DNA from: Jaapia argillacea MUCL 33604
Taxonomy: Eukaryota; Basidiomycota; Agaricomycetes; Jaapiales; Jaapiaceae
Reading direction: 5' to 3'
DNA: 64,000 nucleotides
Assembly (NCBI GenBank): GCA_000697665.1
Contig: KL197762.1
Coordinates: forward strand, 89,281 to 153,280
Shown here: positions 1 to 64,000 of the stretch, one piece after another
How positions within the stretch are numbered: position 1 is the first letter of the stretch
How the letters are laid out: each line of letters begins with the position of its first letter
The notes under the pieces: model-generated
The model's input: the letters and a program-made list of their open reading frames with translations, nothing else
Databases searched by the model: none
Told to the model about the DNA's origin: nothing
Position numbers and translations under genes: made by a program

Positions 1-138
1 AAGTTTGATAGTCAACGGAATGTTGTCCCTAGTCATGGAGGCATATTCAGCTTTTGATGAAAGTATAGTCCTCAGTGATAAATGTCTACTGGCTATGATC
101 AGCTTTGGACCCAACACTCCCAGTACTCTGCTATTGTC

Positions 139-320
139 TATCTTGAACTATATAATTGTCTTGATGACTTGTCTTCGCCAAGATCTCCTGTACCCTGAAA
201 TCCAAGTCTTGGTGTATTGGAATCAATCTTTGGGTTACAATGACATGGACCAAATGGAAGATTGGCAGAAGATCCAAGGGTTGTTGAAGTCTTGGGGGGC
301 TGGGAGAGATGTAGACCATT
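139..320 (+). repeat. Internal direct repeat, copy 1
   Basis: About 180 bp that align with 3291-3475. Shared landmarks, in order, are GAACTATATA, CCAAGTCTTGGTGTA (copy 2 CCCAGTCTTGGTGTA), a GATTGG block, and CTTGGGGGGCTG followed by GAGAGA/GTGAGA. The homology is visible by eye but diverged, with small indels, and fades outside these limits. Confidence 0.6.
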
Positions 321-3290
321 TAAACAGACACTCAGAGGATAAAAACAACCATTGGGATCAGGTATGGCTAGGATGGCGTAGTTCATTATCCCCATCTCCT
401 ACTTGTACAACACCAGCGAGTCTATACTCCCTTACAACCAAGGGTTCTTTCACAATCAGATCCTTGAGTGGATGTCCATTTCAGACCCCACTATCAGAGG
501 TTGCACTTATCACTTTCAAGTTCACCCAGGGATCGGCACCTTTTTGTCCTCAACTTCCTATCCTCATATGTAGATCCAGAAGTCCAGAATCTACAAATTT
601 GGTAAACTGGTTGAACCAGCTGGCTACACTCTCAGCAGCAAAATTTTCTCAGGCTACAAGTTTATCACCCATCCTCAATCGCATTTTGAACCCTCCAGAC
701 AGTGAATGGCTCCCACTCTTGAATGAAGTTCAAAGATGTGAACCTGGCTCTAAACTGGTTTTGGTCTCCATTAATGCTGGTGCTCCTGGCATGTTCCATG
801 CAGGTTCACAATCCCAGTGATTGGTTACTTCACTGAACACGAGATCTCTACCCTCCTCAATCCTATCAAGCCCCTCATTGTCCACCTCTCTTCTTTACCC
901 AGCTGCAGACATCGGTTCAGGCACCCAGAGGCAGCTCAGGCAAGAGCAAATACCTATTGGGTTCTCAACTGCAACTAGCACCAACAATGTTGCACTCTTG
1001 TTGTCGCTTACTTGAGAATATCTACATTCAGAGCCTCCCCTCCAACAACAATACCCCCCTGACTCACATTCTTATGAGGTCCTATCTATGCTTGCCAGTT
1101 GTCCTTGGGCATTGACAAGTGGAAAGGTCCCAGAATTCACTACTGTTTCTTATGTCCAGCATCCAAGCTCTCTGGCTCTCCCTGCCAACTCAGGAACCAC
1201 TCTGCTGAACTTGATTCTAAAACCTTTGTTTGTGGACAGGCTACCTACCAGGACACACAATACTCAGCTATACAGAGAGGAGCCACTGAGCCACTGGGGG
1301 TTGGAATGAATACAGATAACATAGACAAGGCCTCAAGAGTTAGTCCTCAATCCACAAATGACTGGTGCAGTCAACAAGGCCACTCATAGACTTTGCAAGA
1401 AGATACACAAGTCATATTGTTTTCTCAAGAGTTTGGACTTCTTGGATTGATGCTGTCCCTCATCGATAACTCCCTCGCCCATACACCTTTTGCAGACTCA
1501 CACTCCCAACAACAGTTTGCTCCACAACCTCCTCCTTGCTTGCATACAATGCTCCCCATGATCTTTGGGCAAAGGTAGTCAATGGCGCCCACCTTAGTTA
1601 ACTATTCAGCTCTGTGCAGTCTCCTTCGAGTCACCAAAGTGCTCAAGGACCCTAACAAGTTTACTGAGCTAGCCTCGCCAATGTAGGATGTGTACATAGG
1701 TACGCATGCCTTATGATTGTCTTCTTCTGTGAGTTGTGACAGCGCAGCTCCAAAGACATGCTTTGCGTGTGTGACAATTGCTGGTTACCTATGGGAATCT
1801 CTGTCTTTAGGATGGAACTGGAATCTGTGATTGTCAATATCCTTGTGTGCTCTTCAAGGCCTCTGATGTTACCTGTTCCGTCTTCATCTCCAGCACCTGT
1901 CTTCTCAGCCAGTGCTGCTTCCCCTTCATGCTCCTGGAGACAAAAAACAACTGCAGATACAAGTGTATTGACCACTGATGGTGAAGCCCCCTCACTGATG
2001 ACAATGCTAGATCTGGAACCTTCTTCTTGTCAGCCTACTCAACTACATAAAGATCAATTTGCACTGTGTATCAAGGCTACCCTCCCTGATTGCTCGCTAC
2101 AGACACCATCTACAAGTGCTCTAGCCTTATATGATCTTCTTGATGCACCACCTACCTCCAAATCAAATTTTCTCAGCTCTGACAAGACTCCATGGAGTCC
2201 ACCTAGCAATTTGGGCAAAGGTGTCAAATGTTCTGCTAGTCTGGAGGACCCTGGCAAAAGCCAAACAAAGGCAAGGGGACGGTCAGAAACCCAGAGGGCT
2301 ACAGAGGAGTACAAAATACATCAGAAATGGGGCATCCCTCATGCTGTAACAAACACTCCAGTCATGGATGATTGGTGCAGCCAGTGAAGCTCCCCTTGGA
2401 TCAGACAATGCAAATCACAAGTGATATCATCCCATCTGAAGTCTGAATGCACTGTGGCAAGTGCTACCCTTGTTTCTCATTTGTTCTTATCAGGTATCAG
2501 GGGCTACCTCCTTGGCCAAATAGGCAATGAGAACGAAAGTTTTACCTCTCCATGTGGGCACTCAAGCTTGTTGTCTCACTCAATTGTCTATGCTCCAAAT
2601 AGCAAAGCCCCATTACCTTACATGATCTCAAGCTCTGTGTCATGTCCCCACAGGAATTCCATCTCACCTTGTCAACGACCCTCTGAACCATGGACAATGA
2701 GAGTACAACCTTACTGTTGTCTACTTGATTCCTTTGGCCCCACCAATGAGACCTCATCCAATCTCAGGTCCCTCTCACTTTCTGAGCATCACTCAATGGT
2801 GATACGAGATTTCGCTGCAACATTCACTAATGCTTCCCTTGCCATTCTACTTCTGCACTTCGGCACCAAGATAAGCTCCTCCATGCTAAAGGGCCCTATG
2901 GATGCTTGCTTGCATGCTCATTCCACATCAAGAATGGCTGTCAATGGCTGTGCCAAGGCTTGGTCCCTGGCTCTTCAGAGACACATTTACCCTGGGCTTC
3001 CTTCCTCTCAGACTCTACCACCAGCAATTAAACAATGCGACCACCCTCAAGGGTCGACCAGCATTTTGCCTCTGCCTATCACTTCTCATGCACAAACGCC
3101 TACCAAATTATGCCCTGCTAGCTACGACGCCTCTTCCTCTCAAGTATTATCTGGCAATATATTCAACTGTAACTGTGGCCACTTCTCGGAAAGCTGTCTT
3201 CACAGCTCAGCTACAGCCACCTCCAGCAATTATTATTTGGGGCATACACATAGGTGTGTCAGGTGCTCGCACTCCTTGCCCTTTGTCACC

Positions 3291-3475
3291 CTCTATCGTG
3301 AACTATATAGTTGTTTCAATCACTCCAAATCTCCACCAACCTCTCCTGTGCCCAGGAATCCCAGTCTTGGTGTACTGGTATTGGTTCTTGTGTCCCAGCA
3401 ATGCAAACAAACAAAAGGATTGGTGGAATATCTGAGGATTTTTAGAACCTTGGGGGGCTGAGTGAGACACAGGCC
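3291..3475 (+). repeat. Internal direct repeat, copy 2
   Basis: Diverged partner of 139-320, about 3.15 kb downstream in the same orientation, with the same order of landmarks ending in CCTTGGGGGGCTGAGTGAGA. The G-rich end resembles a polypurine tract. Two such copies could mean nested or tandemly duplicated elements. Confidence 0.6.
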
Positions 3476-4034
3476 ACTCGAACAATGGAGCGTCCTCTCC
3501 CCACTCACTCCTCTCAAACTCTTGGTCTTTACGGCAATCTACTCCTTCGGTTGCATCACCATCGTGCTGGCTCACTAGATCTCTCAGTGAGGGTAACACC
3601 AGTATTTTGGTTTCCCACATCCATTCTTGCACACTCACACCTACCAGGAGTCCTGGCTCAACAACTACTTGTTGACTACCCATTCCACCATGAGTCCAAG
3701 CCCTTGGACCTCATCCAAAACTATGAATGCTGGTACCCCAGCTTCCATGGATGTTGGGCACTTAGCAACTTAACCCCATTTGAGTACATATTCTAAACAA
3801 GACTCCTTGGCTCTCTTCCTCTCAACCATGAATGATCATTATAGTCAACATAGCACTACTAATGCTCACCTTCATGCCTATAGCCTACATTTTTCAATCC
3901 TTATCTCCCTTTCTAATTCACCCTCAACTTTTCTACTGGACTATATTGCAGAGAGGTGTTACAGAGACATGAGTAATTTCTGACCAGGGGAATGGGGGGC
4001 TGATACAGAGTGGATACTTGAGAGTGGGGGGCTA

Positions 4035-4766
4035 TGTGATGGGTGTTTACTGGAGACTGTTACTCTCCAGTATCACTCTGTATTGAGTGTGGAAATAGGT
4101 TGAGCAGAGTTTGAATTGCTTCATATATTCGCGTAGTTACTCCTTCAGAATTCATTCATCATTATCTGCATATTCACCTTCGGCCTCCTCATAGAGTGCG
4201 CCGACTGTGTGAAGTAGGCTATCGTTTAAACTTACAGGTCTTCTCAAGACTCAGCCCCAAAAGAGGGTTGAGTAGCAAGACTCTTTCTCTATTGGAATGC
4301 AACTAGGTCGTGTTCCTCCTCACTTAGGGTGTATGCAAAGATGTGCACGCCAAGTGGTCGTTCACCTCCCGAGACTGCAGACAGCTGCAGGCTCAGGAGC
4401 ACGTTTATACGTGCGTAGCAACTACAGGCTACCTGTGAGTAAACCAAGGTCCTCACACCTTGATTCCAGGCTCTAGGCTCACCAGCCCCTCTGACAACAC
4501 TGCAACCTCCCCTTGTGGCATGGCAAGATGTTCCTTGCCCATCACAGCTAGTGGTCATAATAACCAGCCATAATAGATATGAGTCACCTAGTTCATGCAA
4601 TTGACACACTCAGTTAAGAGGTTGATTCATGAATAGGCAGCAAAGATGATGTATTTGAAAGAGAAAACTATGCAAATGCATAAGTAAATTAAAACTCTGA
4701 CACCTGGCTTCCCACACTCAGTCCAGAGTGATACTGGAGAGTATTCCCCAATAACCACCTGTTACA
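4035..4766 (+). mobile_element. LTR-like block with long subterminal inverted repeats
   Basis: It starts TGTGATGGGTG right after a purine run (GAGAGTGGGGGGC) and ends CACCTGTTACA, so it has TG...CA ends like an LTR preceded by a polypurine tract. Unusually for an LTR, about 60 bp at each end are inverted copies of each other; the core TACTCTCCAGTATCACTCTG (4061-4080) pairs perfectly with 4724-4743. A non-autonomous TIR element of about 730 bp is the alternative. No second copy is present here, so LTR identity rests on the ends and the purine tract. Confidence 0.45.
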
Positions 4767-6196
4767 CCTACTGAGTATGTTATCCATGCATTGTTTTCAC
4801 TGTTGACCATTGCATTGTTCTGAATACCTCAGCACTGCCAATAGATATGTCATATTGACATGTGGTTTTGCAGAGATTATGATCTACTATTACTGTTTCA
4901 AACCACAAGAAGACCTACAGCATAGGCTGCTAGGGTCTGGGACCAGGCAAGGTAAGTGATAATGCAATGGTGCAAGGAAACATCAGGTTAGTAGACCATA
5001 TGTTTGCCAACTCACTGGGTACATGAGTACTGAAGCAAATCTGTTAGGATGGCTCACTCTCAGTTTCAAATACTTGCCCTGTCTGCTTGATATGGGTGTA
5101 GATGTATATGGGATTTGAATGTTAGATTTCTGTCTCCTCACCCAGGTGCACCAAAACACTCAGTGCTGCTGACAAGACTTGTAGTTGGCTTACTTTCATA
5201 CCTGTTGTTGAACACCTAAGTTAAGAGGATCTTTCACTAGCTAGATGTGGAAGAATTGAATGTCTCCTCCAATGGGCCTCAGAGTGGCCAATCTTTGATT
5301 GGCTGCAGAGAGGTTACCCTTTGATGTCAATCATTAAAGCATGTTTCATTCTATACTGTTACAATACAGCATGTCCATGGCCAGAGTCACAGGTATCTGC
5401 TAGTAGTTCCATAATTTCTAGCTTAGGCCTACTTAACCATATTAAGGAACCAAGACCACCAGCCCACTCATCATACACAACCCATAAACCTATATGGGCC
5501 CAGGTGGGCTCCACCATGGAACATAATACATTGTCACTATGGGCTGACCATAAAGTATGAGAAAAGCAGCTAAATACCCTCCAGGGAAAAGGTTTTCTTA
5601 TCCCTTTTGCTTAAGTTAGGAGAACTTGGTGAATTTTTGGACAAGGACAACTCACCAGGTAGAACAGACTCCAGACTTACTCCAATATTTATAGAGATTC
5701 AACACTCATACCAGCATTGTATGTGTAAGATAACAGTTAGAAACTAAATATCACAACCAAAGTGATGCAATTTTAGAAATATTTCCTCTTTCAAAAACTT
5801 CAGAAGCCAGACGTCAAAGCCAATTTTCACCTGCATATATAATAATATTTGTTGTGACAATACAGTACATGTGTACAGAGATGAAAGCTAATAGAAAACC
5901 ATTGAGTATTACAATGATTCATCTTGAGACAGAGATAAAAAAAACAACCAAATGGCCTAGAATATTTAACAAAACCTTTACAATGTTACAGAAAAAGGAA
6001 TACAGGTGGAAGTATGTAGACAATGCCTGACATGATAGTGATGACAAATGTATTTTGAAAGAGTAGCTATATGAATGCATTAAGATCTTCCTCAAAATGT
6101 ATTGTAGGATAAGTGCTTATAGATGTTTTTATCTTGGTACTGAATACTTTATAGTTTATCCATCTTGATATATGTAGATACTCTCATGACAAGCTT
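4767..6196. other. AT-rich intergenic, no gene seen
   Basis: CpG-poor, AT-rich sequence between the LTR-like block and the 3' end of the NLR gene. Open frames are short and lack any codon pattern. The part next to 6197 (AT-rich, with several AATAAA-like strings) should include the NLR 3' UTR and polyadenylation region. Confidence 0.6.
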
Positions 6197-9100
6197 CTAT
6201 TGGCCTCTCTCCATGTAAAGATGCGCCAATTTATTCCTGACTAGGCAAGTGTCATTGTGATTTTCACCCAGCACTCTTTTCCTTATCACTAATACATCTT
6301 CTAGAAGATCTTCTGCCTCTTTCCAGAGTCTCTGCTTAGAATACAGTGTAGAAAGAGTAATCATAGTTCTTAGTACATCTTCATGATCTTCATCTAACAA
6401 CTTCTGCCTGGCCTTTAATACCTCTGCAATCAGAATCTCAGCCTCCTTCCATTGTTGTTGTTTGAAGTAAACAGAGGCCAGATTCTCCATATTTTTAAGA
6501 GTGCGACTGTCATCTTCACCCCACACCCTAAGACTAAACTCTAGAATCTTCATCTGAAGCTCTGCTTCATCTTCCCACAAATTTTGATTTGAATAGAGTA
6601 ATGCTAAGTTGGCCATACTAGTAGCCACACCTAAGTGATTGGCGCCTAACAACTTCTCCTTAACTATAACCACTCTCTTCCATAGTTCTGCTGCTTCATT
6701 CCATTGACCCTTCATTTTGTAGATTTGTGCCAAATTTGACATACTATCAATTGTGTTGATGTGCATCTCTCCAAAAGTGTCAGTGCTAATCTGCAAAATC
6801 TGTCTCTCTCGTGTTGCAGCCTTTTCCCATAACTTTAGATGAGAATATGTAGACACTAGCTTATGGATACTATCAAGTAAATTGGGATCGTTGACACCAG
6901 ACTGGACTTCCTCAATCTCAACTACCTGGACCCATAGCTTTGCTGCCTCACTCCATTGCTCTTGTGCACTCCATATTGATGCTATGCTAGACATAGTATC
7001 TAATGATGTTGGAAGTATCTGGCTAGCAATCAGACTATCAGCCATTAATGCATGAGTTTCAAGCTTTTGAGCATCTTCTAGTTTTCCTAAATGGCGGTAT
7101 ATGGATGCCAGATGGCCCATGCTGACCAAGGTGTGAGGATGATTCTCACCTAGTGTTGACTTTCGTTCTTGCATGACTTGAAACTCCAGCTGCTCTGCAT
7201 CCTCCCACTCATCACATTCACGGTAGACCTGTGCAAAAGCAGCAGCAATCCAAGAACTCACACCATCTTTTGCATGTGCTTCTTTAATATGTGGAAGAAG
7301 TGATCTTCTAAAAGCCATCCCCTCCCACTGTTTATGTGGATATATGGAAAGAGCCAATATCTGCATGGTACAGTTTCGAGTTCCTTGTGGATTATCAACT
7401 TGCCCACAAAGCCATTCATGGAAAAGTGTGTGAAGAGAGTATTTTTCAATGTCTTTGTCAATTGTAAAGAGAGAGTGCTGCTGAGCCTCATTGATGACAT
7501 CCATAAACTTCAGTGAGGACCAGCAACCATTCACAGATTTGAAATTTAACAGAAAGTCAATGACCTCTCCATTAGACAGCTTCTTAGAGTCAGATACATT
7601 GATACCAGCAAAGGCACTCTGGAAGATATCTTCAGATATTCCCTCATGGTGTAGAAATGCACATATCTGCAAGAAAAATCTGGCAAGATGACTCAGCTTA
7701 TGAAAGGTGATCTTCCACATCTTGTACAGAGACCATGGATATTGGTCCTTCTTTTGCACAGTATCTACAGTTAGTAGATCTGTGCGATTGACTCTATATA
7801 TCTGGAGAAGCTTGCTAAGAGTGTACATATAGGTTGCAATTATTCTACCTGCTTGATCTACTGCCAGTGGAAGATAACCAAGTTCACTGACAATTGCTGA
7901 AGCTAAATCTTGTGAAGATTCCCCTTGATTCTCTCCTATCACCTTTAAAAGTAGTTCAATTGCCTCATCTGGCCTCATTTGTAAGATTTCATATGCTGAT
8001 TGAGAATGAAGGGCATGAATACGAGTTTCATAGTTTCTACTAGTAATAAGAATGTTTCCATGTTTACACTGAGGAATGAATTGATGGAGATTGACTTTAG
8101 GATCATTAGCATTGTCAATCAGCAATAGCCATTCTTGACATTGGCTGTGAAGCCACATAATAGTATCCTCCCATTTTGTTCCAATACCATTCCAAGCAGC
8201 TATAGCACGAAGGCTTGATTGAAGAGTCTTCTCAGAAGTACCATCTATCAAAAAGACATGCCAAAAGCTTGAACAAAGTCAGCATGCTGAAATTGCAAAT
8301 AGTAAATAACTAACAAAGAATCATTCATTTCCTGGCATTCCTCAACAAACTTTAATGCAATCTGAGTTTTCCCTACTCCTCCAAGTCCATGAAGCACAAA
8401 GATCCGCTGTTTATGACATTTGACAGATGACAAAGAGGGACCAAAAAAAGTGTGGAGTTCCAATAATATGTCCTCTCGCCCAGTAAATGTAGGTGTTGGC
8501 AGAGGGCAAATGTTAGAATCTAAGAGTGCAGCAAAAGATTCCAGTAAGATTGAATAATCATAATGATCATAATGAGTATCTTTCACATACTTTGTTTCAA
8601 GCCACCACCTTGTTCCTCTGAAACAGTAGAGGTCCCTTCTTGCCACTGTTTGATGACTCCATGCCTATTAACCTCATCATGCCCAGATATAATTGCATGC
8701 ACAGCTTCATCAACTTTTTTCTTTATATGAAACCGCTGCAAATAGCTAGTTGTATGACTTTTGACTTCACCCAACCTCTCCCATTGAGCCATTGTCACAT
8801 TCTGTAACCCTTGTTCCACATTGAAGCGGAAATACTTCCTGTCCTGATCAACAAAATCCCTCTCCATCCTCTCAGCTGTTGCTTCACAATCAGTAGCAAT
8901 TTGCTGAAGTGCCTGTAAAATGTCCTTGGGTAGAAGTCTAGTGAAAAGATTACTATGGGTTGGAAGTTTGATAGTTGCTGCTTGACCCGCTCCAATGCTA
9001 ATAATGCATGCAACTTGTCAGTTTGGAAAAGCCAACTTTGCTTCTTGCAGGACAACCTGGATTGGATTATTGCAACCAATACTACCAGCATCAACAAAGG

Positions 9101-9868
9101 CTTCCTGCATATTGGGCCTGCCTACTAGCATCTTCTTGAAAAAGGTTGGGGATGCAGATGTAGCACGAGCGGCCTCCCATATGCAGCAGTCATCAGTTGC
9201 ATTGTGCGAAACAGTGTACGTGCGGAAAAGGTGAGGGGTGGCAGATGAGATGTTGTTTGCAGCTGCAGCGCAAACAAACCTGATTTTCGGTTAGTTGCAT
9301 TCTATCAAGGTGTTGATATTCACTCACGTTTTACAGGCTTCAGGCCCAGGGTCCAACATCGGGGCATGAGGATCTCCCGTCGACGACATCACGATATGCT
9401 TGAGAGCCTCTTCCAACTTCGTCGCCTTGAACTTCCCTTCCTGACATCTGAACTTTTGTTCCGAGAACACTTGTCTTACCATTTCAGCGTATAACCGCGT
9501 GGCATCTTCCACAGACAGACGCAGACGCCCAAGCAACAGGGCAATTAGTCTATCCAGAGCGTACATTAGTGGAGGAAGACATGCTGAAGACTGCTTGCGT
9601 ACCCTCCAGTACTTGTTCCGCCAATAAGATCAAAGTATTGGCAGGGATACGGAACTTTACCAGGTTCAGCCAAGTAATCGTTTTCCTGTATTCCAGCCAT
9701 GATTTCGCCTAAGATGACCAGTTCTGATAATCCGCGTATCCCGCCTCCATCTAACACACACCAACCAACTCCTTAGTGTCTCTGCTGGAGCTTCCAAGAC
9801 GGATGGAACATACCAAGAGAGAGCAATCTCAATCCGCTGGAAGGATGTGGGGCGAAGGGTTGGGACAT
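6197..9868 (-). pseudogene. Patatin-NB-ARC-TPR (NLR-like) gene with one in-frame stop
   Basis: Six exons: 9868-9814, 9750-9603, 9549-9328, 9279-8591, 8519-8315 and 8267-6197. They sum to 3,390 nt (1,129 residues) with every junction in phase. Residues 13-228 are a patatin-like phospholipase: DGGGIRG oxyanion loop at 19-25, nucleophile Ser65 in GTSTG, catalytic Asp205 in VDAG. NB-ARC follows: Walker A GLGGVGKT (416-423), Walker B LLLIDN (487-492), TSR sensor (515-517), LPLA (572-575). About 760-1129 are kinesin-light-chain-like TPRs. Family members are fungal STAND receptors; effector lipase, switch and sensor roles are inferred. Codon 229 (9018-9020) is TGA where relatives typically have Arg, consistent with CGA to TGA. 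Translation would end inside the patatin domain unless this is an assembly error, suppressed, or the NB-ARC-TPR part is made separately. The frame is otherwise clean, so the lesion is recent. Confidence 0.85.
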
Positions 9869-55536: not shown

Positions 55537-56515
55537 GCGGGCTGTTGATAATAAAGCAAGAAAGGCCAGAGAGGTCAGGCAGCTGCGAGCGGCGTGAATC
55601 GACTGAAACCTACACGATTAACCAAGGGTTCGAACGTTGGATGGTCGAGTAAGGTTGGCAGGTGTCCAACAAGTGATGAGGATTCGAAGCGATCTGAACC
55701 ACCGTATTTATACCAGTAGCAAGGTTTCACGAGATCGGCGAAGTGTTACCTCCATCGGTTCCTCCTCGTGAGGGGAAAGAAGGCGGACGATCGGTCCTCC
55801 CGACAGAAAGATCTGATTTTAGCAAGGTACATAGATCGTCTCCGAGTCATGCCCAAAGCTTGGAGGAGAGTTCGCCGGTATTGCGGTGCAAGAGGTATGA
55901 AGAAGGTTCAAAACAAGCTCTGAGGATGCTATATCTACGGCCGTAGAGAGGATATATCTCGAGTGAGTGGTTTTTAGGTGCCTCATGATTTGGCGATGAA
56001 CCACTAGAATCTCAGGGACTAGCAGAGGCGCCTGGGAGCAGGATCGTGGCCAAGAAAACCCGTGAGCATCAAGGAACTTGGGTATAGGTCCATCACAGAT
56101 CTCGACACAGGTCTTCAATGAAGAATAAGTGCACGTTCCTTGCTTTGGGAGATCCAAGGATCAAATCCCCCAGCAAGTCATTTTGCGGGGGTGCGCGGTC
56201 TGAGAAACCTCGTCGGGTTGAGCGAAGCACCGTGACGTGCAATTCAGCCATCGTTCATAATCAGGGGGGTGTGCCTTGCCACTTTGTCAGAAATGAGAGT
56301 TCGGAATAGCACAATCAGCGAAGAAGCAAACGTTGAGAACAAAGTTCCCCTGAGGCTGAGTGGCTGGACAAACGTGGACAAAACTTGAACAAACAAGTCG
56401 CGGAGTTTTGAATCGTTCTGTTGAGTCACCGGTCACAGTGGTTGAACCGTTGTGGGAGGTTGGGTTGCTGTGAAATTCCTTTGACTCGAAACATATATAG
56501 GTTATCAGGGAGTAT

Positions 56516-57181
56516 CACGGTAAACAAGCGCGACTTTGTTGCCGCAGCAAAGTCTCAATTAGCGACGCTGCATTGCCTGCATTTGTCATCGACTGTGAAG
56601 TGAAAGCATAGCTGACAACGAGCCTTAAATATACTGTTGGCTTTGCTGTAGCCTACAACTCTAACCACATATTTTGAATATTGAAACCTACCACATATTC
56701 TAAGTTTGCTGGCTGAAAATGCCACCCCGGCTTTTTCCACAACACAGCCAGAATATGACGAAAGCTAAAATGTCACAACAAGCTGAGACTTTGTTGTGAC
56801 GAAATACTTTGAATTTGTTGTGGTGACTTATTCGATTTTTGGCAGAGTAACCATGGTAACGAAGGATAAGTCACCACAACAAATTCAAAGTATTTCGTCA
56901 CAACAAAGTCTCAGCTTGTTGTGACACTCTAGCTTTCGTCATACCCTGGCTGTGTTGTGGAAAAAGCCGGGGTGGCATTTTCAGCCAGCAAACTTAGAAT
57001 ATGTGGTAGGTTTCAATATTCAAAATATGTGGTTAGAGTTGTAGGCTACGGCAAAGCCAACAGCATATTTAAGGCTCGTTGTCAGCTATGCTTTCACTTC
57101 ACAGTCGACGACAAATGCAGGCAATGTGGCATCGCTAATTGAGACTTTGCTGCGGCGATAAAGTTGCACTTGTTTACCGTG
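56516..57181. mobile_element. 666-bp foldback element (non-autonomous, 3-bp target duplication)
   Basis: Two inverted arms of about 316 bp (56516-56831 and 56866-57181), nearly identical, around a ~34-bp centre. Termini are CACGGTAAAC...GTTTACCGTG. Flanks are TAT on both sides. Copy B of the duplication has the unfilled site near 61056-61072 (GGGAGCATTAGGG), equal to copy A without the element and without one TAT, which confirms insertion with a 3-bp duplication. CACGG ends with a 3-bp duplication resemble CACTA-type elements, but PIF/Harbinger types also make 3-bp duplications. No transposase. A 61-codon frame present in both arms is a by-product of the symmetry. Confidence 0.9.
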
Positions 57182-57372
57182 TATTCGGGTGTGCTGGAGA
57201 GCATAAGTGCCTGTCAATTTGGTTGAGCTTCACGCAAGCGAAGCACTGTGACAATGCGAGTTCGTTCGAAAGCCTCTGAGGGCTCGAAAACATCACTGGC
57301 TGCACATTCCAACCTCAATCAAGATCATCCCTGTTGTCGACAACCTAAAAACACAACACCAGTGCGGGGAGG

Positions 57373-58631
57373 TCAGCGGTCAGTTTCCCTTTCCTGACCC
57401 CTCCTCCTCAATTCCAGAACCTCCATCAAGTTCTCTAATGCTCTCACATCATCCCTCGCCCCCTCCAAATTGTCCTCAATTAAGATATATCCACAATCGG
57501 TGTCACAATACGAATAATGCAGCTTTCGGTGCGGCTCCAAACCCTGGTGATTGCACCCATAACCGCTCAGAAGGGTCAAGGACGTCAACGCAGGACAGTC
57601 TGTCACAAGACGTCGGAAAAAGGTCGACCAGAAGAACGATGGATTATCCGAAACTTCTTGATAGTCTTCGGGGAGGATATAAGGGCAGGCGTGGAGCACA
57701 ATGTGTGTGAGGGTGGTCCCATGTTTGAATATGAATCGATCCACCTCCATCTCCCCAAAGACCACATTCTCAAGGCTGAGCGAAGTGAGTGTTGGAAAGT
57801 ATAGCGTGCTCAAGTAGATGTTGGGTACACATCCGACTTCTTGGTCGCTCTTGACGGTTAAAGAAGTGAGGTTGGCTTGAGTTGGGGGTAACAATTGTTT
57901 GGAGACTGTGCCTTCCCAAAAGTCACGCAGTGTGTCGTTAAGGAAACCACCCTCAGGCAAGTCGTTCTCCAAAACCACCTCTAAGACCAAGACCTCCAAA
58001 CTACTGAGGATGTCACGAAGGCCCTGGGTATCGTAGACTTTGTTGTTGGGTAGAGTGGAGATATTCTCCAATACTAGGGTACGAATTGCGTGAGGAGGAT
58101 TAACGCTAATAGCGGTCAGGATGTCCCATTGGAATCGGAGATCTGGTGAAGCTTTTTCGGGGAATTCGTATGAATCAGCTTCCACAAAGTGGGGGACGAA
58201 TTTGAGGTTGAGGGTATGCAAAGAGGGGAAGGAAGGAAGCTGAGAGAATGCCCTTGTCAGGGCTGTTGTCATTTCCCAGATCTCTGGAATTGCTCATAGG
58301 TGAACTCCTTTGATGAATAGTTGTAACAAATAATAATCGACTTGCCTTCAATCATTTCTGCCTGACGAGCTTCCCTCCTAAATATATACTCCCCCTCGAC
58401 AGCAACAACTTCCAGCCAAATCTCTTCTACCAACTCGCTCACTTGTTTGTTTTGTGATATCGCCTCTAGCGAGGTTGCACATCTGACCATGTCCTTGAGC
58501 TTGATGATGCGGAAAAGTGATGGCGTAATGAGGTCGTAGAGACCCTTGTTCGTTCCTCGCAAAGCCGCAAGGGTAGAAGGCAGGGAGAGAGAAATGATCT
58601 GTCTCAGTAATTCGAGAGGGAGGTGCTGCAT
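57373..58631 (-). CDS. F-box/LRR-like protein, copy A (intact)
   Basis: Exons 58631-58346 and 58292-57373 sum to 1,206 nt, 401 residues. The F-box is at the very N-terminus (MQHLPLELLRQIISLSLPSTLAALRGTNKGLYDL). The intron has a GC donor, GAAG|GCAAGT (58293-58345, 53 nt), and joins IEA to IPEIWEM in phase; no GT donor gives an open join. The C-terminal two thirds are Leu-rich (LPSFPSLHTLNLKFVPHF, LTSLSLENVVFGEM, CPALTSLTLLSGYG). Likely SCF substrate receptor. The duplicate at 61249-62535 is disrupted. Confidence 0.8.
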
Positions 58632-59399
58632 ACCTTGTAGATGGGTCTATGAATCAAGTCGCGCGTACCGATAGAGAATTGATACTGTGAGGGGTAGCTC
58701 GGCGTCTTGACAACACGGTTATTACCATCGGTCCAAAGTTGCCGGCCATCTTTCGCCGTCGTTGTTACCTTCCTGGTCCTTGGCCAACAACAAGTAGCTT
58801 TGCATGCCGGCGACTCACGAGCCCTGTTCTGAGTCGAAAAGCCGTATTCCAAATATTGGTGTGATGACAGCGAGAACTTAAAGGGTCGTTTGCATTGAAG
58901 TGTGGTCGCATTCTTTCGAAATTCAAATGTCCACCTCAGTGCCAAAAATCCACCCCGACAATTTCTTGTCCAGCTCAGTCTGACGAAGGTTCCATAGAAT
59001 TCACTGCTAAGATCTCTCAATATCGTCCATCAATCAAGAATCAAATGTTCAGTCTGCAATTCTGCAGTGCGGGCTTACTTATTTTCGGATACCATTCCAC
59101 TCCAGCTTCTTCGGGCGCTTGTGTATGCGTATCAGCTTCATCAACAGCCTTAACAACAAAAGCTTCATCTGACCCTTGCCACCAGCATTGCTATATGTTG
59201 GCGCCTTTCGATTGAAACTTCCACTTCTTGATGGTATATCGTGGTGACATTCTCTCAAGTTGATCTCGGATATCGATCCCAGTGGGCGACATCTCAAACC
59301 TGGGCCCGAAAGGTGGATATTTGTTAATTCCATGAATTTATGCTGGGTTGTCTAACCACTATTTACGATGTCGTGGTCATGACTCTAGGTACTCAGACA
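58632..59399. other. F-box copy A upstream region and edge of the duplication
   Basis: Homology to the copy B upstream region runs to about 59115 (the AGCTTCTTC block) and then ends. 59116-59399 is unique to this position and includes the start side of the truncated F-box gene. No RNA gene seen. Confidence 0.55.
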
Positions 59400-59621
59400 A
59401 TGAGGCTCTTTGACCTTAATCACAACGTGCTGTCTATCATATTATCCCATCTAGAACGGGAGGATTATCCACATATCGTGCGCATGTGTAGGACAGCATA
59501 CTACGTCGGAATGCTGTTTCTGATGACCACCATTGAGTTGAAGTTATATCAGATCGGGAGCTTCTGCACGTTCATGGCCACCGAGGCATCATCACGCTGG
59601 GTGCCTTCTGTGGGCAGCTAA
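59400..59621 (+). pseudogene. Truncated F-box gene, 5' part only
   Basis: ATG at 59400 opens MRLFDLNHNVLSIILSHLER, a canonical F-box start (LFDLNxxVLxxILSxL), followed by CRTAYYVGMLFLMTTIELK and QIGSFCTFM as in many agaric F-box proteins. About 10-20 codons later homology to any protein stops, and at about 59634 sequence homologous to copy A intron/exon on the opposite strand begins. The gene therefore appears cut by the duplication junction. It is not related in sequence to the F-box genes of copies A and B. Confidence 0.65.
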
Positions 59622-59670
59622 CTTCTGCCGTAAGTCGAAATCAACACTATCAAAAAGGCAGGGCACTAAC

Positions 59671-60008
59671 CAAGTTGGCAAGAAAGACGTGGAGGAAGCT
59701 TTAGAGTGATCGAAGTTTAGGTGACCTTCCTTGATCTTCAGGTGGAGAACAGCCTCATGATTACAGACAAACTCCAATCTGGGTTTGCCAAACACGGCGT
59801 GGAACACGGTATCCTCCATATGCTGGATGTTGGAGCACTGCTTGGCACCAACGGCGAATTCAGCGAGGGCAAAATCGTAGCAGACGCATTCCAAGGGCTT
59901 CAAACCGGGACCAGTGTGCTTCACGCACTCGACGGAGTTATCACACAGAGCTCCAAGCTGAGCGTTGATATAATGCACGGCAAGATGTGCAGAGTTTTGA
60001 GTGAGAGA
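59671..60008 (-). pseudogene. Orphan first exon of the large unknown gene
   Basis: From 60008 (MSLTQNSAHLAVHYINAQLG) it matches the first exon of the gene at 51667-55536 over about 113 codons with few changes (e.g. Arg to Cys or Trp at several CpG-derived codons). The donor is GTTAGT in place of GTTCGT. Nothing of exons 2-9 follows; the sequence breaks off within the former intron 1. The promoter side is duplicated too, so it may still be transcribed. Confidence 0.85.
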
Positions 60009-60904
60009 CATCGGGGCTCTTGATAATAAAGAAAGAAGGCTAGAGAGGTCAAACAGCTGCAAGCGGCGTGAATCGACTGGAACCTACACGATTAACCAAG
60101 GGTTCGAAAGTTGGATGGTCGAGTAAGATTGACAGGTGTCCAACAAGTGATGAGGATTCGAAGTGATTTCAACCACTGTATTTTTACCAGAAGCAAAGTT
60201 TCACGAGATCGGCAAAGTGGTACCTCCATTGGTTCCTCTGCGAGTGGGGGAAAGAAGGGGGAGGATCGGTCCTCCCGACACAAAGATCTGAATTTAGCAA
60301 GGTACACAGATCGTCCCCAAGTCACACCCAAACCTTGGAGGAGAGTTTACTGGTATTGCGGTGCAAGAGATATGAAGAAGGTTCAAAACAAGCTCTGAGG
60401 ACGCTATGTCCATGGCCGTAGAGAGGATCTATCAAGAGAGTGTGGTTTGTAGGTGCCTCGTGGTTTGTCGATGAACCACTAGAATCTCAGATACTCCTAG
60501 AGGCGCTGGGAGAGGGGTCGTGACCAAGGAACTGGACTACAGGTCCATCACAGATCTTGACACAGGTCTCCAATGCAGAACAAGCGTTGCATTCCTTGGT
60601 TTGGGAGAACCAAGGATCAAATCTCCCAGCAAGTCATTTTGTGGGAGTACGCGATCTGAGAAACCTCGTTGGGTTGAGTGAAGCACCGTGACGTGCAATT
60701 CAGCCATCGTTCATAATCAGGGGGGTGTGCCTTGCCACTTTGCCAGAAATGAGAGTTCGGAATAGCACAATCAGCGAAGAAGTAATCATTGAGAACAAAG
60801 TTCAACTTGAGGCCGAGTGGCTGGACAAACGTGGACAAAGCTAGGACAAACAAGTCGCGGAGTTCTGAATCCCCCCGACGTTAACGTTGAGTTGCTGTTG
60901 ATTG

Positions 60905-61002
60905 CTAGGCTAGTCACCAGCCTGTCTATAAGAGATCAGTATGGTGCAAAACAGCTTTGCACCATACTGTTGTTGATCATAGCCAGGTTTGCCCCAGCCT
61001 AG
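60905..61002. mobile_element. Hairpin MITE with 8-9-bp target duplication
   Basis: An imperfect palindrome of about 97 bp: ends CTAGGCT...AGCCTAG, with a perfect central stem CAGTATGGTGCAAA (60937-60950), a 5-nt loop and TTTGCACCATACTG (60956-60969). It is flanked by direct copies of TTGATTGCT (60898-60906 and 61003-61011). Copy A has no such insert. An 8-bp duplication suits hAT-type transposition; no coding capacity. The transcript would form a strong hairpin. Confidence 0.8.
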
Positions 61003-61248
61003 TTGATTGCTGTTGGTTTGTTTCCTGGTTGACTCAGAGGATATGTAGTTGATGTGGGAGCATTAGGGCGCGCTGGAGCCTGAGAACATAAGTTCTTGAA
61101 CACTTGATTGCGCTTCACGCAAGCAAGACATCGCAACAATGAGAGTCGCATGAAGTTGCCATCAGCTCCTTAGGAACCCTCGCTGGATACACTCCAACCT
61201 GAGTCAACATCGATGACCACCTAAAACACAACGCCAGTGCGGGGGAAC

Positions 61249-62535
61249 TCAGTGGCCAGTTTCCTCATCCTGACCCATCCTCCTCGACTCCAGAACCTGC
61301 ATCAAGTTCTCCAATGCTCTCATATCGTCCCACGCCCCCACCAAATCTTCCTCAATCAAGATATATCCACAATCGGTGTCACAATACGAATAATGCAGCT
61401 TCCGGTGCAGCTCCAAACCCCGGTGATTGTGCCCATAACCGTTCAGAAGGGTCAAGGACGTCAACACAGGACAGTCTGTCACAACTCGTCGGAAAAAGGT
61501 CGACCAGAAGAACGACGGGTTATCTGAAACTTCGTGATAGTCTTCGGGGAGGATATAAGGGCAGGTGTGGAGCACAATGTGTGTGAGGGTGGTCCCATGT
61601 TTGAATATGAATCGATCCGCCTCCATCTCCCCAAAGAGTACGTTCTCTAGGCTGAGCGAAGTGAGGTTTGGAAAGCATAGCGTGCTTAAGTAGATGTTGG
61701 GTACACATCCGACTTCTTGGTCACTCTTGATGGTTAAAGAAGCGAGGTTGGCTTGAGTTGGGGGTAACAATTGTTTGGAGACCGTGCATTCCCAAAAATC
61801 GCGTAGTGTGTCGATAAGGAAACCACCCTCAGACAATTTGTTATCCGAAACCACCCCCAAGACCAAGACCTCCAAACTACCGAGGACGTCGCAAAGGCCC
61901 TGGGTATCGTACACTTCGTTGTTGGGTAAAGCGGAGAGATTCTCCAATATGAGAGTACGAATAGTGTGAGGAGGATTGGCGCCAATAGCTTTTAGAATGT
62001 CCCATTGTAGTCAGAGATCTAGTGAAGGTTTTTTAGGGATTTCGAGGGAATCGGGTTCGGCAAAGTGGGGGACGAATTTCAGGTTGAGGGTATGCAAAGA
62101 GGGGAACGAAGGGAGTTGAGGGTATGCAAAGAGGGGAACGAAGGGAGTTGAGAGAACGCCCTTGTCAGCACCTCTGCTTTGCAGATCCCTGAAATCCCCC
62201 ATGAGCAAACTGGGAAAGGAGTCGTAGTAAATAATGGACCCACCCCCAGCCATGAATATTGCCGCCTGAAGGGCCCGCCTCCAATGTATATTCTTCCCCT
62301 CGACAGTAACAACTTCCAGCCAAATCTCTTCTACCAACTCGCTCACTTGTTTGTTCTGGGAGATTACCTCTAGTGAGGTTGCACATTGGACCGTGTCCTT
62401 GAGCTTGATGACGCGGAAAAGTGACAGCGTGATGAGGTCGTGGAGACCCTTGTTCGTTCCTCGTAAAGCCGCAAGGGTAGAAGGTGGGGAGAGAGAAACG
62501 ATCTCTCTCAGTAATTCGAGAGGGAGGTGCTGCAT
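61249..62535 (-). pseudogene. F-box/LRR-like protein, copy B (disrupted)
   Basis: Same N-terminus as copy A (MQHLPLELLREIVSLSPPSTLAALRGTNKGLHDL) and the same Leu-rich body to 61249. Three lesions are visible: the GCAAGT donor of copy A is lost; a 32-bp tandem duplication at 62089-62152 shifts the frame; and a TGA stands where copy A has CGA (DL*LQWDIL versus DLRFQWDIL) near 62010. Downstream of these the frame is still open for about 240 codons, so inactivation is recent. Confidence 0.85.
62089..62152. repeat. 32-bp perfect tandem duplication in the copy B F-box gene
   Basis: Unit GGTATGCAAAGAGGGGAACG plus 12 more bases occurs twice head to tail (62089-62120, 62121-62152). Copy A has it once. 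32 is not a multiple of three, so it breaks the frame; replication slippage is the likely cause. Confidence 0.9.
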
Positions 62536-62945
62536 ACCTCGTAGATGGGTCTATGAATCAAGTCGTGGGTATTGATAGATTTCAAGTTGAGGGGTTGCTC
62601 GGCGTCTTGACAATGCAGTTATTACTATCGGTTCAAGTTGCCAGCCATCTTTCGCCGTCGTCATCACCTTGGTCAACAACTGTGCAAGACTTCCGCGGGC
62701 GGTTGGTTTTTCACAACTTAAAGTAGCTTTGCATACCGACGAGCCCTGTCGTCCGAGTCGTAAAGTTGAATTCCCGTGGTTGATTGGTGTGATGCAGCAG
62801 CGAGAACCCGAAAGGTCGTTTGCATTGAAGTTCTGAATCGGAATTCTTGCAAACGTTCATCAAGCAAGAACCATGTCCAGTCTGAAATTCCGTGCAGTGC
62901 AGGCTTATTTTCGGATACCATACATATATAGGCTCCAGCTTCTTC

Positions 62946-64000
62946 ACCTTATGGAGGCTTTCTGGTTACGGTTCGCCGAAGGTTGGATGCCGAAGATGCC
63001 AAGGTCCCAGCTGATGGGAACCCTCGAACACCCTGTTTGGCAGTGATGGCATCGGCATTTCGTCAAATGATGCCGAGACTGCTTCCGCAACACCAAACCT
63101 TCGCGCTCACTGTCAGCAACGACGGTGACGAATGTGCTGCCCAATATTGATGAAATATATAGATAAATTTGCGATTTTTTTCTCATGTGAAACAGGGGTA
63201 CTACTGTTGGATCAGAGCATTGATTCCATGGCTGCTTGCCTGGTAAATGAGTTAATAAAAGTGAAAAAAGCGAATTAATTCAGTTTAAGATATACTAATG
63301 TATCAGAGTATTAGGGGATGCTATAAATGCAGGCATTGTGTACATCAGAATTGTTTCATTGTTTCAAGTATGTTCTCAATCCAAGGAAAGGAGATTTCCC
63401 AAAGCTGAGTGATGTGGAGGCAAAACAGTTGACAAGGAGTCTCTGGATGAATCTCAGAGTATAAGTGGATGGAAAACCAAGGATCTGAGGGCATGCAGAG
63501 TAGAGCTCTGATCTGTACAGTAAATACATGGATACTGACACCTGTAAACAATACATCCCAGTCCCCATTCAGTGAGTACATTGTGGGGAACCCAATCCAC
63601 CTACACACAGAATTGTGCTGTTCTACTATTTCAACCATATCTCCATCAAATTGAGCAGACAGCATCCCCTCTCTTCAGCCTGAGTCGAACTTGCCAGTTT
63701 CATAAAATTTCAGACTCAACGTCCCGTTCCCTCACTTCTGACAATCACACAACACTCAGTTCCATCTCAAACGAAACTCGACTTTCAGTAATTCACTTCC
63801 TCATCATTCCGGAGATATGTGAATATCCGAAGGCATGCCTAATCTTCCTAACAAATCAATTGTATTCTAGGTGATGTTTGAATTTCCTATCTGCTCCAAC
63901 TCCAAGATTCCTCCCAAGACCAGACATCCACTGCTTTGCCTCCACATTGCTCAGTATCAGGAATTCTGATGTTATTGAGTTAGGAAAATATTTGAGCTGA
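62946..64000. other. Gene-less right end, CpG-poor from about 63,170
   Basis: No coding sequence recognised on either strand. From about 63,170 the sequence becomes AT-rich and CpG-poor like the left end, suggesting repeat or heterochromatic DNA that continues beyond the window. No terminal repeats or transposon motifs visible. Confidence 0.5.

What the first reader, a model, noticed from the sequence alone, without database searches (positions are those of the whole stretch)
6197..9868. Patatin-NB-ARC-TPR receptor with a single CGA-type nonsense mutation
Three modules are intact by motif (GTSTG and VDAG patatin dyad, GLGGVGKT Walker A, TPR tail) over six phase-clean exons. Codon 229 is TGA, followed at once by QVACIIS, where patatin relatives usually have Arg. 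One C to T change at a CpG would create it. Either this allele is a newly dead NLR, or the lesion splits it into a patatin and an NB-ARC-TPR product. Loss-of-function NLR alleles kept in a population are of interest for nonself recognition and heterokaryon incompatibility.
Basis: partly seen in the sequence, partly recalled or inferred. Interest (0 to 1): 0.75.

Follow-up and report, generated by a model that had tools for sequence, protein, structure and literature searches.

The report
Fungal immune receptor broken by deamination
A fungal immune-receptor gene carries one premature stop codon, and several sister copies in the same genome carry similar stops, apparently because most of each gene lies in DNA where CG pairs have been lost by mutation.

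Summary
Minus strand 9868-6197 encodes a six-exon patatin-NB-ARC-TPR receptor (1129 codons) with one in-frame stop, codon 229, TGA at 9020-9018. Nine in-genome paralogues read through this position with no intron; the codon there is CGA in 2, CAA in 3, AAA in 4, so Arg is not the usual residue, though it is that of the two copies whose patatin groups with this one.

The lesion is not isolated. Five of the six members whose NB-ARC can be read carry stops, 14 in all; the five TGA stops each sit where at least two relatives have CGA. CpG observed/expected is 0.85-1.05 over window 10-56 kb but 0.13-0.19 over 1-8 kb; the drop falls inside the gene near 9160, 140 bp before the stop. All eight NLR-type copies show such a step near the same point; two patatin-only paralogues do not.

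Best reading: a recently broken receptor, hit by C-to-T deamination in a probably CpG-methylated gene body. A functional split into two proteins is not supported. Methylation, expression and strain data are missing.

The parts
9814..9868 (-). exon 1 (ATG at 9868)
9603..9750 (-). exon 2, patatin GGGIRG and GTSTG motifs (Ser65 codon 9613-9611)
9328..9549 (-). exon 3, patatin
8591..9279 (-). exon 4, patatin with VDAG (Asp205 codon 9092-9090), holding the stop
9018..9020 (-). premature TGA, codon 229
8315..8519 (-). exon 5, start of NB-ARC with the P-loop GLGGVGKT
6197..8267 (-). exon 6, rest of NB-ARC and the TPR tail
1..9160 (.). CpG-depleted domain (7.4 CpG per kb against 65.1 between 9160 and 12000); it continues left of the window at three of four places sampled
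1..6000 (.). flank 3' of the gene, rich in repeated sequence (95 matches listed in the own genome, 40 of 81 candidates scored)

Best explanation
This is a patatin-NB-ARC-TPR NLR gene of a filamentous fungus (probably an agaricomycete, an inference from intron pattern and gene content, not tested) that was inactivated recently by one nonsense change. Shown: one stop in an otherwise open 1129-codon model; sense codons at that column in nine paralogues; strong loss of CpG, with TpG and CpA in excess, from exon 4 to beyond the gene's 3' end; the same step in the other NLR-type members; stops in four other members, with TGA at columns where relatives have CGA. Inferred: that the depleted stretch is or was CpG-methylated, that deamination of methyl-C in a CGA codon made the TGA, and that the transcript now yields at most a 228-residue patatin fragment or is destroyed, so that the receptor is null in this strain. 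By analogy with Neurospora PLP-1, the intact protein would be a receptor whose activated NB-ARC switches on a membrane-damaging phospholipase and kills the cell.
For: Gene model and single stop; domains; column codons; grouping with the CGA-bearing pair C10a/C10b at 100/99 support. CpG step at 9160 (dlnL 137.4); CpG o/e 0.69 in the CDS before the stop and 0.15 after it. Where C10a and C10b both have CG, the eight depleted copies keep CG in 17 of 221 cells, and 94 of 221 are CA or TG; GC, CC and GG together are kept in 298 of 724. Stops: 5 of 48 CGA-or-TGA codons against 7 of 504 CAR-or-TAR codons (Fisher P 0.002; collapsed to three TGA columns P 0.04). The two members with one stop each (this gene and C17a) both have TGA. 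C-5 cytosine methylase matches over cut-off at 3 places of the genome.
Against: No reads, methylation data or second strain: an error in this base call or silence of the locus cannot be tested. Nine of the 14 stops in the family are TAA or TAG, which CpG deamination alone does not make (7 at CAR, 1 at TGG, 1 at AAA). The copies and their cells are not independent, and the denominators come from hand-cut exon segments. C10a and C10b are themselves 88% identical repeats, yet not depleted, against a simple repeat-triggered process. Four of 18 other NB-ARC/NACHT loci show no depletion. The left flank is repeat-rich, so for this gene alone closeness to repeats could explain the depletion.
Confidence: 0.72

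Rival explanations
1. The lesion yields useful products: a short free patatin, or a downstream NB-ARC-TPR protein begun at an internal Met.
For: Pfam's patatin match (16-218) and both catalytic residues lie before codon 229. Two patatin-only paralogues exist in the genome (C10a, C10b; no NB-ARC match near them).
Against: The patatin-only paralogues remain 50% identical (56 of 111) to this gene beyond the stop column, so the module runs past it; that segment holds the strand VACIISIGAG, a core strand of the patatin fold (recalled). An NB-ARC product would have to restart at codon 280 or later.
Confidence: 0.08
2. The stop is bypassed at the RNA level: spliced out, read through or edited.
For: 36 in-frame GT-AG pairs of 35-200 nt could remove the stop. 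The context UGA-CAA is of a leaky type (recalled). Frames stay open over long stretches of the stop-bearing paralogues.
Against: None of the 36 donors reads GTNNGT, which 4 of the 5 model introns have, and each would delete residues that the paralogues encode without an intron. Stops recur at different places in other members and include TAA and TAG. TGA also ends 8 of 11 window ORFs examined, so it is not visibly reassigned.
Confidence: 0.08
3. Sequencing or assembly error, or a minority nucleus caught in a consensus.
For: A draft of 95 contigs with N runs inside paralogues; no reads are available.
Against: Five TGA stops at CGA columns in five family members, in a domain with matching CpG loss, is not the pattern of random base errors.
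Confidence: 0.06
4. Classical CpA-type RIP, as in Podospora NLR pseudogenes, made the stop.
For: C-to-T changes in a repeated NLR family; TAA and TAG at CAR columns in C36, C17b and C58.
Against: After the stop, TA/AT is 0.67 and (CA+TG)/(AC+GT) 1.73: CpA is kept and CpG lost, the opposite of CpA-type RIP.
Confidence: 0.03

Closest known systems
Neurospora crassa PLP-1 (patatin-NB-ARC-TPR NLR that recognises SEC-9; PMC12881547 and PMC10197012, passages seen)
   Same: Same order of domains; catalytic motifs and P-loop present in the sequence
   Different: This copy has a premature stop; ligand and role in incompatibility unknown; no direct sequence comparison with PLP-1 was made
Podospora anserina NWDp1 and NWDp2, NLR pseudogenes inactivated by RIP (PMC1805685, passages seen)
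   Same: An NLR family holding copies with nonsense changes made by C-to-T mutation
   Different: There CpA-biased RIP with stops accumulated in the NACHT domain of NACHT-WD genes; here CpG loss, with the 5' ends of the genes spared, in patatin-NB-ARC-TPR genes
CpG-to-TpG hypermutation in Rhizoctonia solani AG8 (PMC4014442, passages seen)
   Same: CpG-biased C-to-T change in genes of a basidiomycete; TGA named there as the main nonsense product
   Different: There spread over genes and repeats of a heterokaryon; here confined to sharp-edged domains that include NLR bodies
Methylation of multicopy paralogous genes in Coprinopsis cinerea (statement in PMC8889193, passage seen)
   Same: A modified-cytosine mark on multicopy genes of an agaricomycete
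   Different: No methylation was measured here

Membership tests
Patatin-NB-ARC-TPR NLR (PLP-1 type) | N-terminal patatin domain with GGGxRG, GxSxG and DxG | tested here: met
   Pfam Patatin 60.0 bits over cut-off 27.7; motifs in the model
Patatin-NB-ARC-TPR NLR (PLP-1 type) | Central NB-ARC with P-loop | tested here: met
   NB-ARC 40.4 bits over 23.5; GLGGVGKT
Patatin-NB-ARC-TPR NLR (PLP-1 type) | C-terminal TPR array | tested here: met
   TPR_10 173.5 bits, 5 stretches
Patatin-NB-ARC-TPR NLR (PLP-1 type) | Made as one protein | tested here: not met
   TGA at codon 229; it is a broken gene of this family unless the stop is bypassed
Patatin-NB-ARC-TPR NLR (PLP-1 type) | Cell death on allorecognition through SEC-9 | not testable with these tools
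   needs strains
CpA-type RIP product | High TpA, low CpA and TpG | tested here: not met
   TA/AT 0.67, (CA+TG)/(AC+GT) 1.73 after the stop
CpG methylation-deamination footprint | CpG deficit with TpG and CpA excess | tested here: met
   CpG o/e 0.15, TpG+CpA o/e 1.38 in the CDS after the stop; 0.85-1.05 for CpG over 10-56 kb
CpG methylation-deamination footprint | Measured 5-methylcytosine | not testable with these tools
   no methylation data; methylase-like genes present

The most novel reading that the evidence does not exclude
In this genome NLR receptors are marked, in a programmed way, by CpG methylation that spares promoter and first exons and covers the regulatory and sensor part, so that CGA codons there turn into TGA again and again: a built-in generator of null receptor alleles, the CpG counterpart of RIP on Podospora NLRs.
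Probability: 0.35. Interest if true: 0.7.

Novelty: new variant of a known kind. Interest (0 to 1): 0.5.

Why it matters
Broken NLR alleles are usually treated as random loss. Here the stop falls in a sharply bounded CpG-depleted body that recurs across the family and in 11 of 18 other NB-ARC/NACHT loci. If the footprint is methylation, an epigenetic mark on immune receptors would set where they break, and the question of how fungi make and keep null recognition alleles could be tested with methylation maps and a few strains.

Tried and rejected
Splicing around the stop: 36 in-frame GT-AG pairs listed, none with a GTNNGT donor, each cutting residues that the paralogues encode. CpA-type RIP: rejected on dinucleotide indices. 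Arg as the general residue: rejected (2 of 9). Reassigned TGA: 8 of 11 window ORFs examined end in TGA (mechanical ORFs, not curated genes). Simple repeat-triggered mutation: C10a and C10b, 88% identical, are not depleted. A whole-body rule for all NLRs: not borne out; four of 18 other loci show no depletion, two only a dip in the last bin (L073, L074), and in one (L079 continued in L088) CpG recovers downstream. A first Fisher test counted all nine TAR stops against CAR codons; two proved to lie at TGG and AAA columns and the test was redone. Pre/post-stop identity showed no clear excess decay after the stop in this gene: 49 of 84 before and 56 of 111 after against C10a, close to other members. 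Eight paper searches (listings and abstract starts seen) showed no paper on a CpG step inside basidiomycete NLR genes; that is a limited library. Pfam gave nothing for two ORFs of the left flank.

Not resolved: a change of frame in the TPR part of C58 may be a frameshift or an intron; paired one-base gaps in nucleotide alignments were taken as alignment artefacts and not examined further; the tree is midpoint-rooted and this gene's branch is long (0.7).

Full report
What is there. The window is a 64-kb piece of contig C54 in a 43.7-Mb, 95-contig fungal genome. On its minus strand a gene runs from an ATG at 9868 to a stop at 6197. The model has six exons and five GT-AG introns of 47-71 nt, 3390 coding bases and one in-frame stop, TGA at codon 229 (9020-9018). 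Read with X at that codon it has a patatin domain, an NB-ARC domain and a TPR tail, each above Pfam's cut-off. The best solved relatives of the first 345 residues are bacterial CapV-type patatins. Motif names such as the catalytic dyad are recalled.

Is the stop real in the sequence? Yes. In nine paralogues in the same genome the coding sequence runs across the position with one codon opposite the stop and no intron. That codon is CGA in C10a and C10b, CAA in C36, C17a and C17b, and AAA in C23, C28, C58 and C64. On a protein tree of exon 4 the window gene groups with the C10 pair (100/99), on a long branch and with midpoint rooting. CGA gives TGA by a C-to-T change on one strand and CAA by the same change on the other, so the column itself looks like CpG decay in two directions; this is an inference. 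Whether the base call is right cannot be tested without reads.

The family. Of eight NLR-type copies, NB-ARC sequence can be read in six. The gene here (1 stop), C17a (1), C58 (2), C36 (5) and C17b (5) carry in-frame stops, 14 in all; C23 has none in the 840 codons read before its gap. C28 and C64 end in runs of N after the patatin part (307 and 219 codons read, no stop) and are counted as NLR-type because they group with C23 and C58. C17b is also interrupted by several kilobases, partly N, between patatin and NB-ARC. The five TGA stops lie at three columns: this gene's; a patatin Arg in C58 and C17a where five relatives have CGA; and an NB-ARC Arg in C36 and C17b where three relatives have CGA. 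Of the nine TAA or TAG stops, seven lie at CAA/CAG columns, one at TGG and one at AAA. Per codon, stops are commoner at CGA (5 of 48) than at CAR (7 of 504; Fisher P 0.002, or 0.04 if TGA is counted by column). These counts rest on hand-cut exon segments and on related copies.

The CpG step. Over window 10,001-56,000 all 23 two-kilobase bins have CpG observed/expected of 0.85-1.05; over 1-8,000 the four bins have 0.13-0.19; over 56,001-64,000 they have 0.66-0.79. A change-point fit puts the edge at 9160, inside exon 4 and 140 bp before the stop, with 65.1 CpG per kb on one side and 7.4 on the other. In the other seven NLR-type copies the edge lies 260-420 nt after the DGGG motif, from 222 to 59 nt before exon 4; C17a is a weaker case, its 5' flank being partly depleted already (17.9 against 2.4 CpG per kb). 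C10a and C10b, patatin genes with no NB-ARC match near them, show no step (dlnL 0.9 and 1.4). TpG and CpA are in excess in the depleted part (1.38) and TpA is not raised, which fits deamination at CpG and not CpA-type RIP. Aligned to CpG sites common to C10a and C10b, the eight depleted copies keep 17 of 221, and 94 of 221 read CA or TG, against 298 of 724 kept for GC, CC and GG. Left of the window three of four places sampled are depleted (L084, L085, L087) and one is mixed (L086). The left flank is full of repeated sequence.

Is it special to this family? Of 20 NB-ARC loci fetched, two are this gene and C23. Of the other 18, 11 drop from near-normal values to 0.25 or less within the locus (L065-L068, L071, L075-L079, L083), two show only a dip in the last bin (L073, L074), one is low nearly throughout (L069), and four show no drop (L070, L080, L081, L082). 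For L079 the dip is short and CpG recovers downstream (L088). So the pattern is common among these loci but not universal. In the 50 NACHT matches, four have a stop inside the matched stretch and 46 have none; those stretches are short and this is only a loose yardstick.

How it most likely works. The intact form would be a receptor of the PLP-1 kind: in N. crassa PLP-1, cell death needs both the patatin activity and the ATP-binding motif of the NB-ARC (PMC12881547, passages). In this copy translation would end after 228 residues. The catalytic residues lie before that point, but the free-standing patatin paralogues remain similar for a further 111 columns, so a stable enzyme is unlikely. I take the gene to be a recent null: one stop, canonical splice sites, motifs intact on both sides. 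The cause that best fits is deamination of a methylated CpG. C-5 methylase-like genes are present, but methylation itself is not shown.

What is known. Podospora NLR pseudogenes inactivated by RIP (PMC1805685, passages) and CpG-to-TpG hypermutation with TGA as its expected nonsense product in Rhizoctonia solani (PMC4014442, passages) are close precedents. Modified cytosine on multicopy paralogous genes is reported for Coprinopsis (PMC8889193, passage). Dyrka et al. report that patatin NLRs are almost always of the NB-ARC type and usually one or two per species (PMC4986451, passages), so eight NLR-type copies would be an expansion. Published surveys may miss such genes: the Sordariales study removed sequences with premature stops (PMC12258605, passages). 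What I did not find in eight searches is a CpG step inside basidiomycete NLR genes with spared 5' ends; the library is partial.

Verdict. The reading as a newly dead NLR is likely, the split into two products unlikely, the claim about populations untested. A new variant of a known kind, of moderate interest.

Noticed in passing
C23, C28, C58, C64 (loci L057, L061, L058, L056): These four patatin domains have GGG or GGS where the others have DAG, so the catalytic Asp is missing; C58 also has GTGTG for GTSTG. Their enzymes may be dead while the rest of the receptor is kept.
   Followed up: partly
C36:128795-133700 (locus C36_125828): A very long TPR array that is open for over 1,600 codons apart from five stops.
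   Followed up: partly
C17:390,000-400,900: C17b is interrupted between patatin and NB-ARC by a stretch with near-normal CpG content, partly N, while both of its flanks are depleted: it looks like a late insertion.
   Followed up: no
window 4035-4767: A repeat present at many places in the genome with inverted ends (arms 4061-4095 and 4709-4743, 91% complementary): perhaps a foldback element.
   Followed up: partly
window 57373-58293 and 61249-62010: Two similar LRR-like ORFs (weak match to PF24758, below its cut-off) in a stretch with mildly reduced CpG, 0.66-0.79.
   Followed up: no
C10:199,700-208,500: Two patatin genes in tandem, 88% identical, without NB-ARC and without CpG loss; their patatin groups with that of the window gene.
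   Followed up: partly
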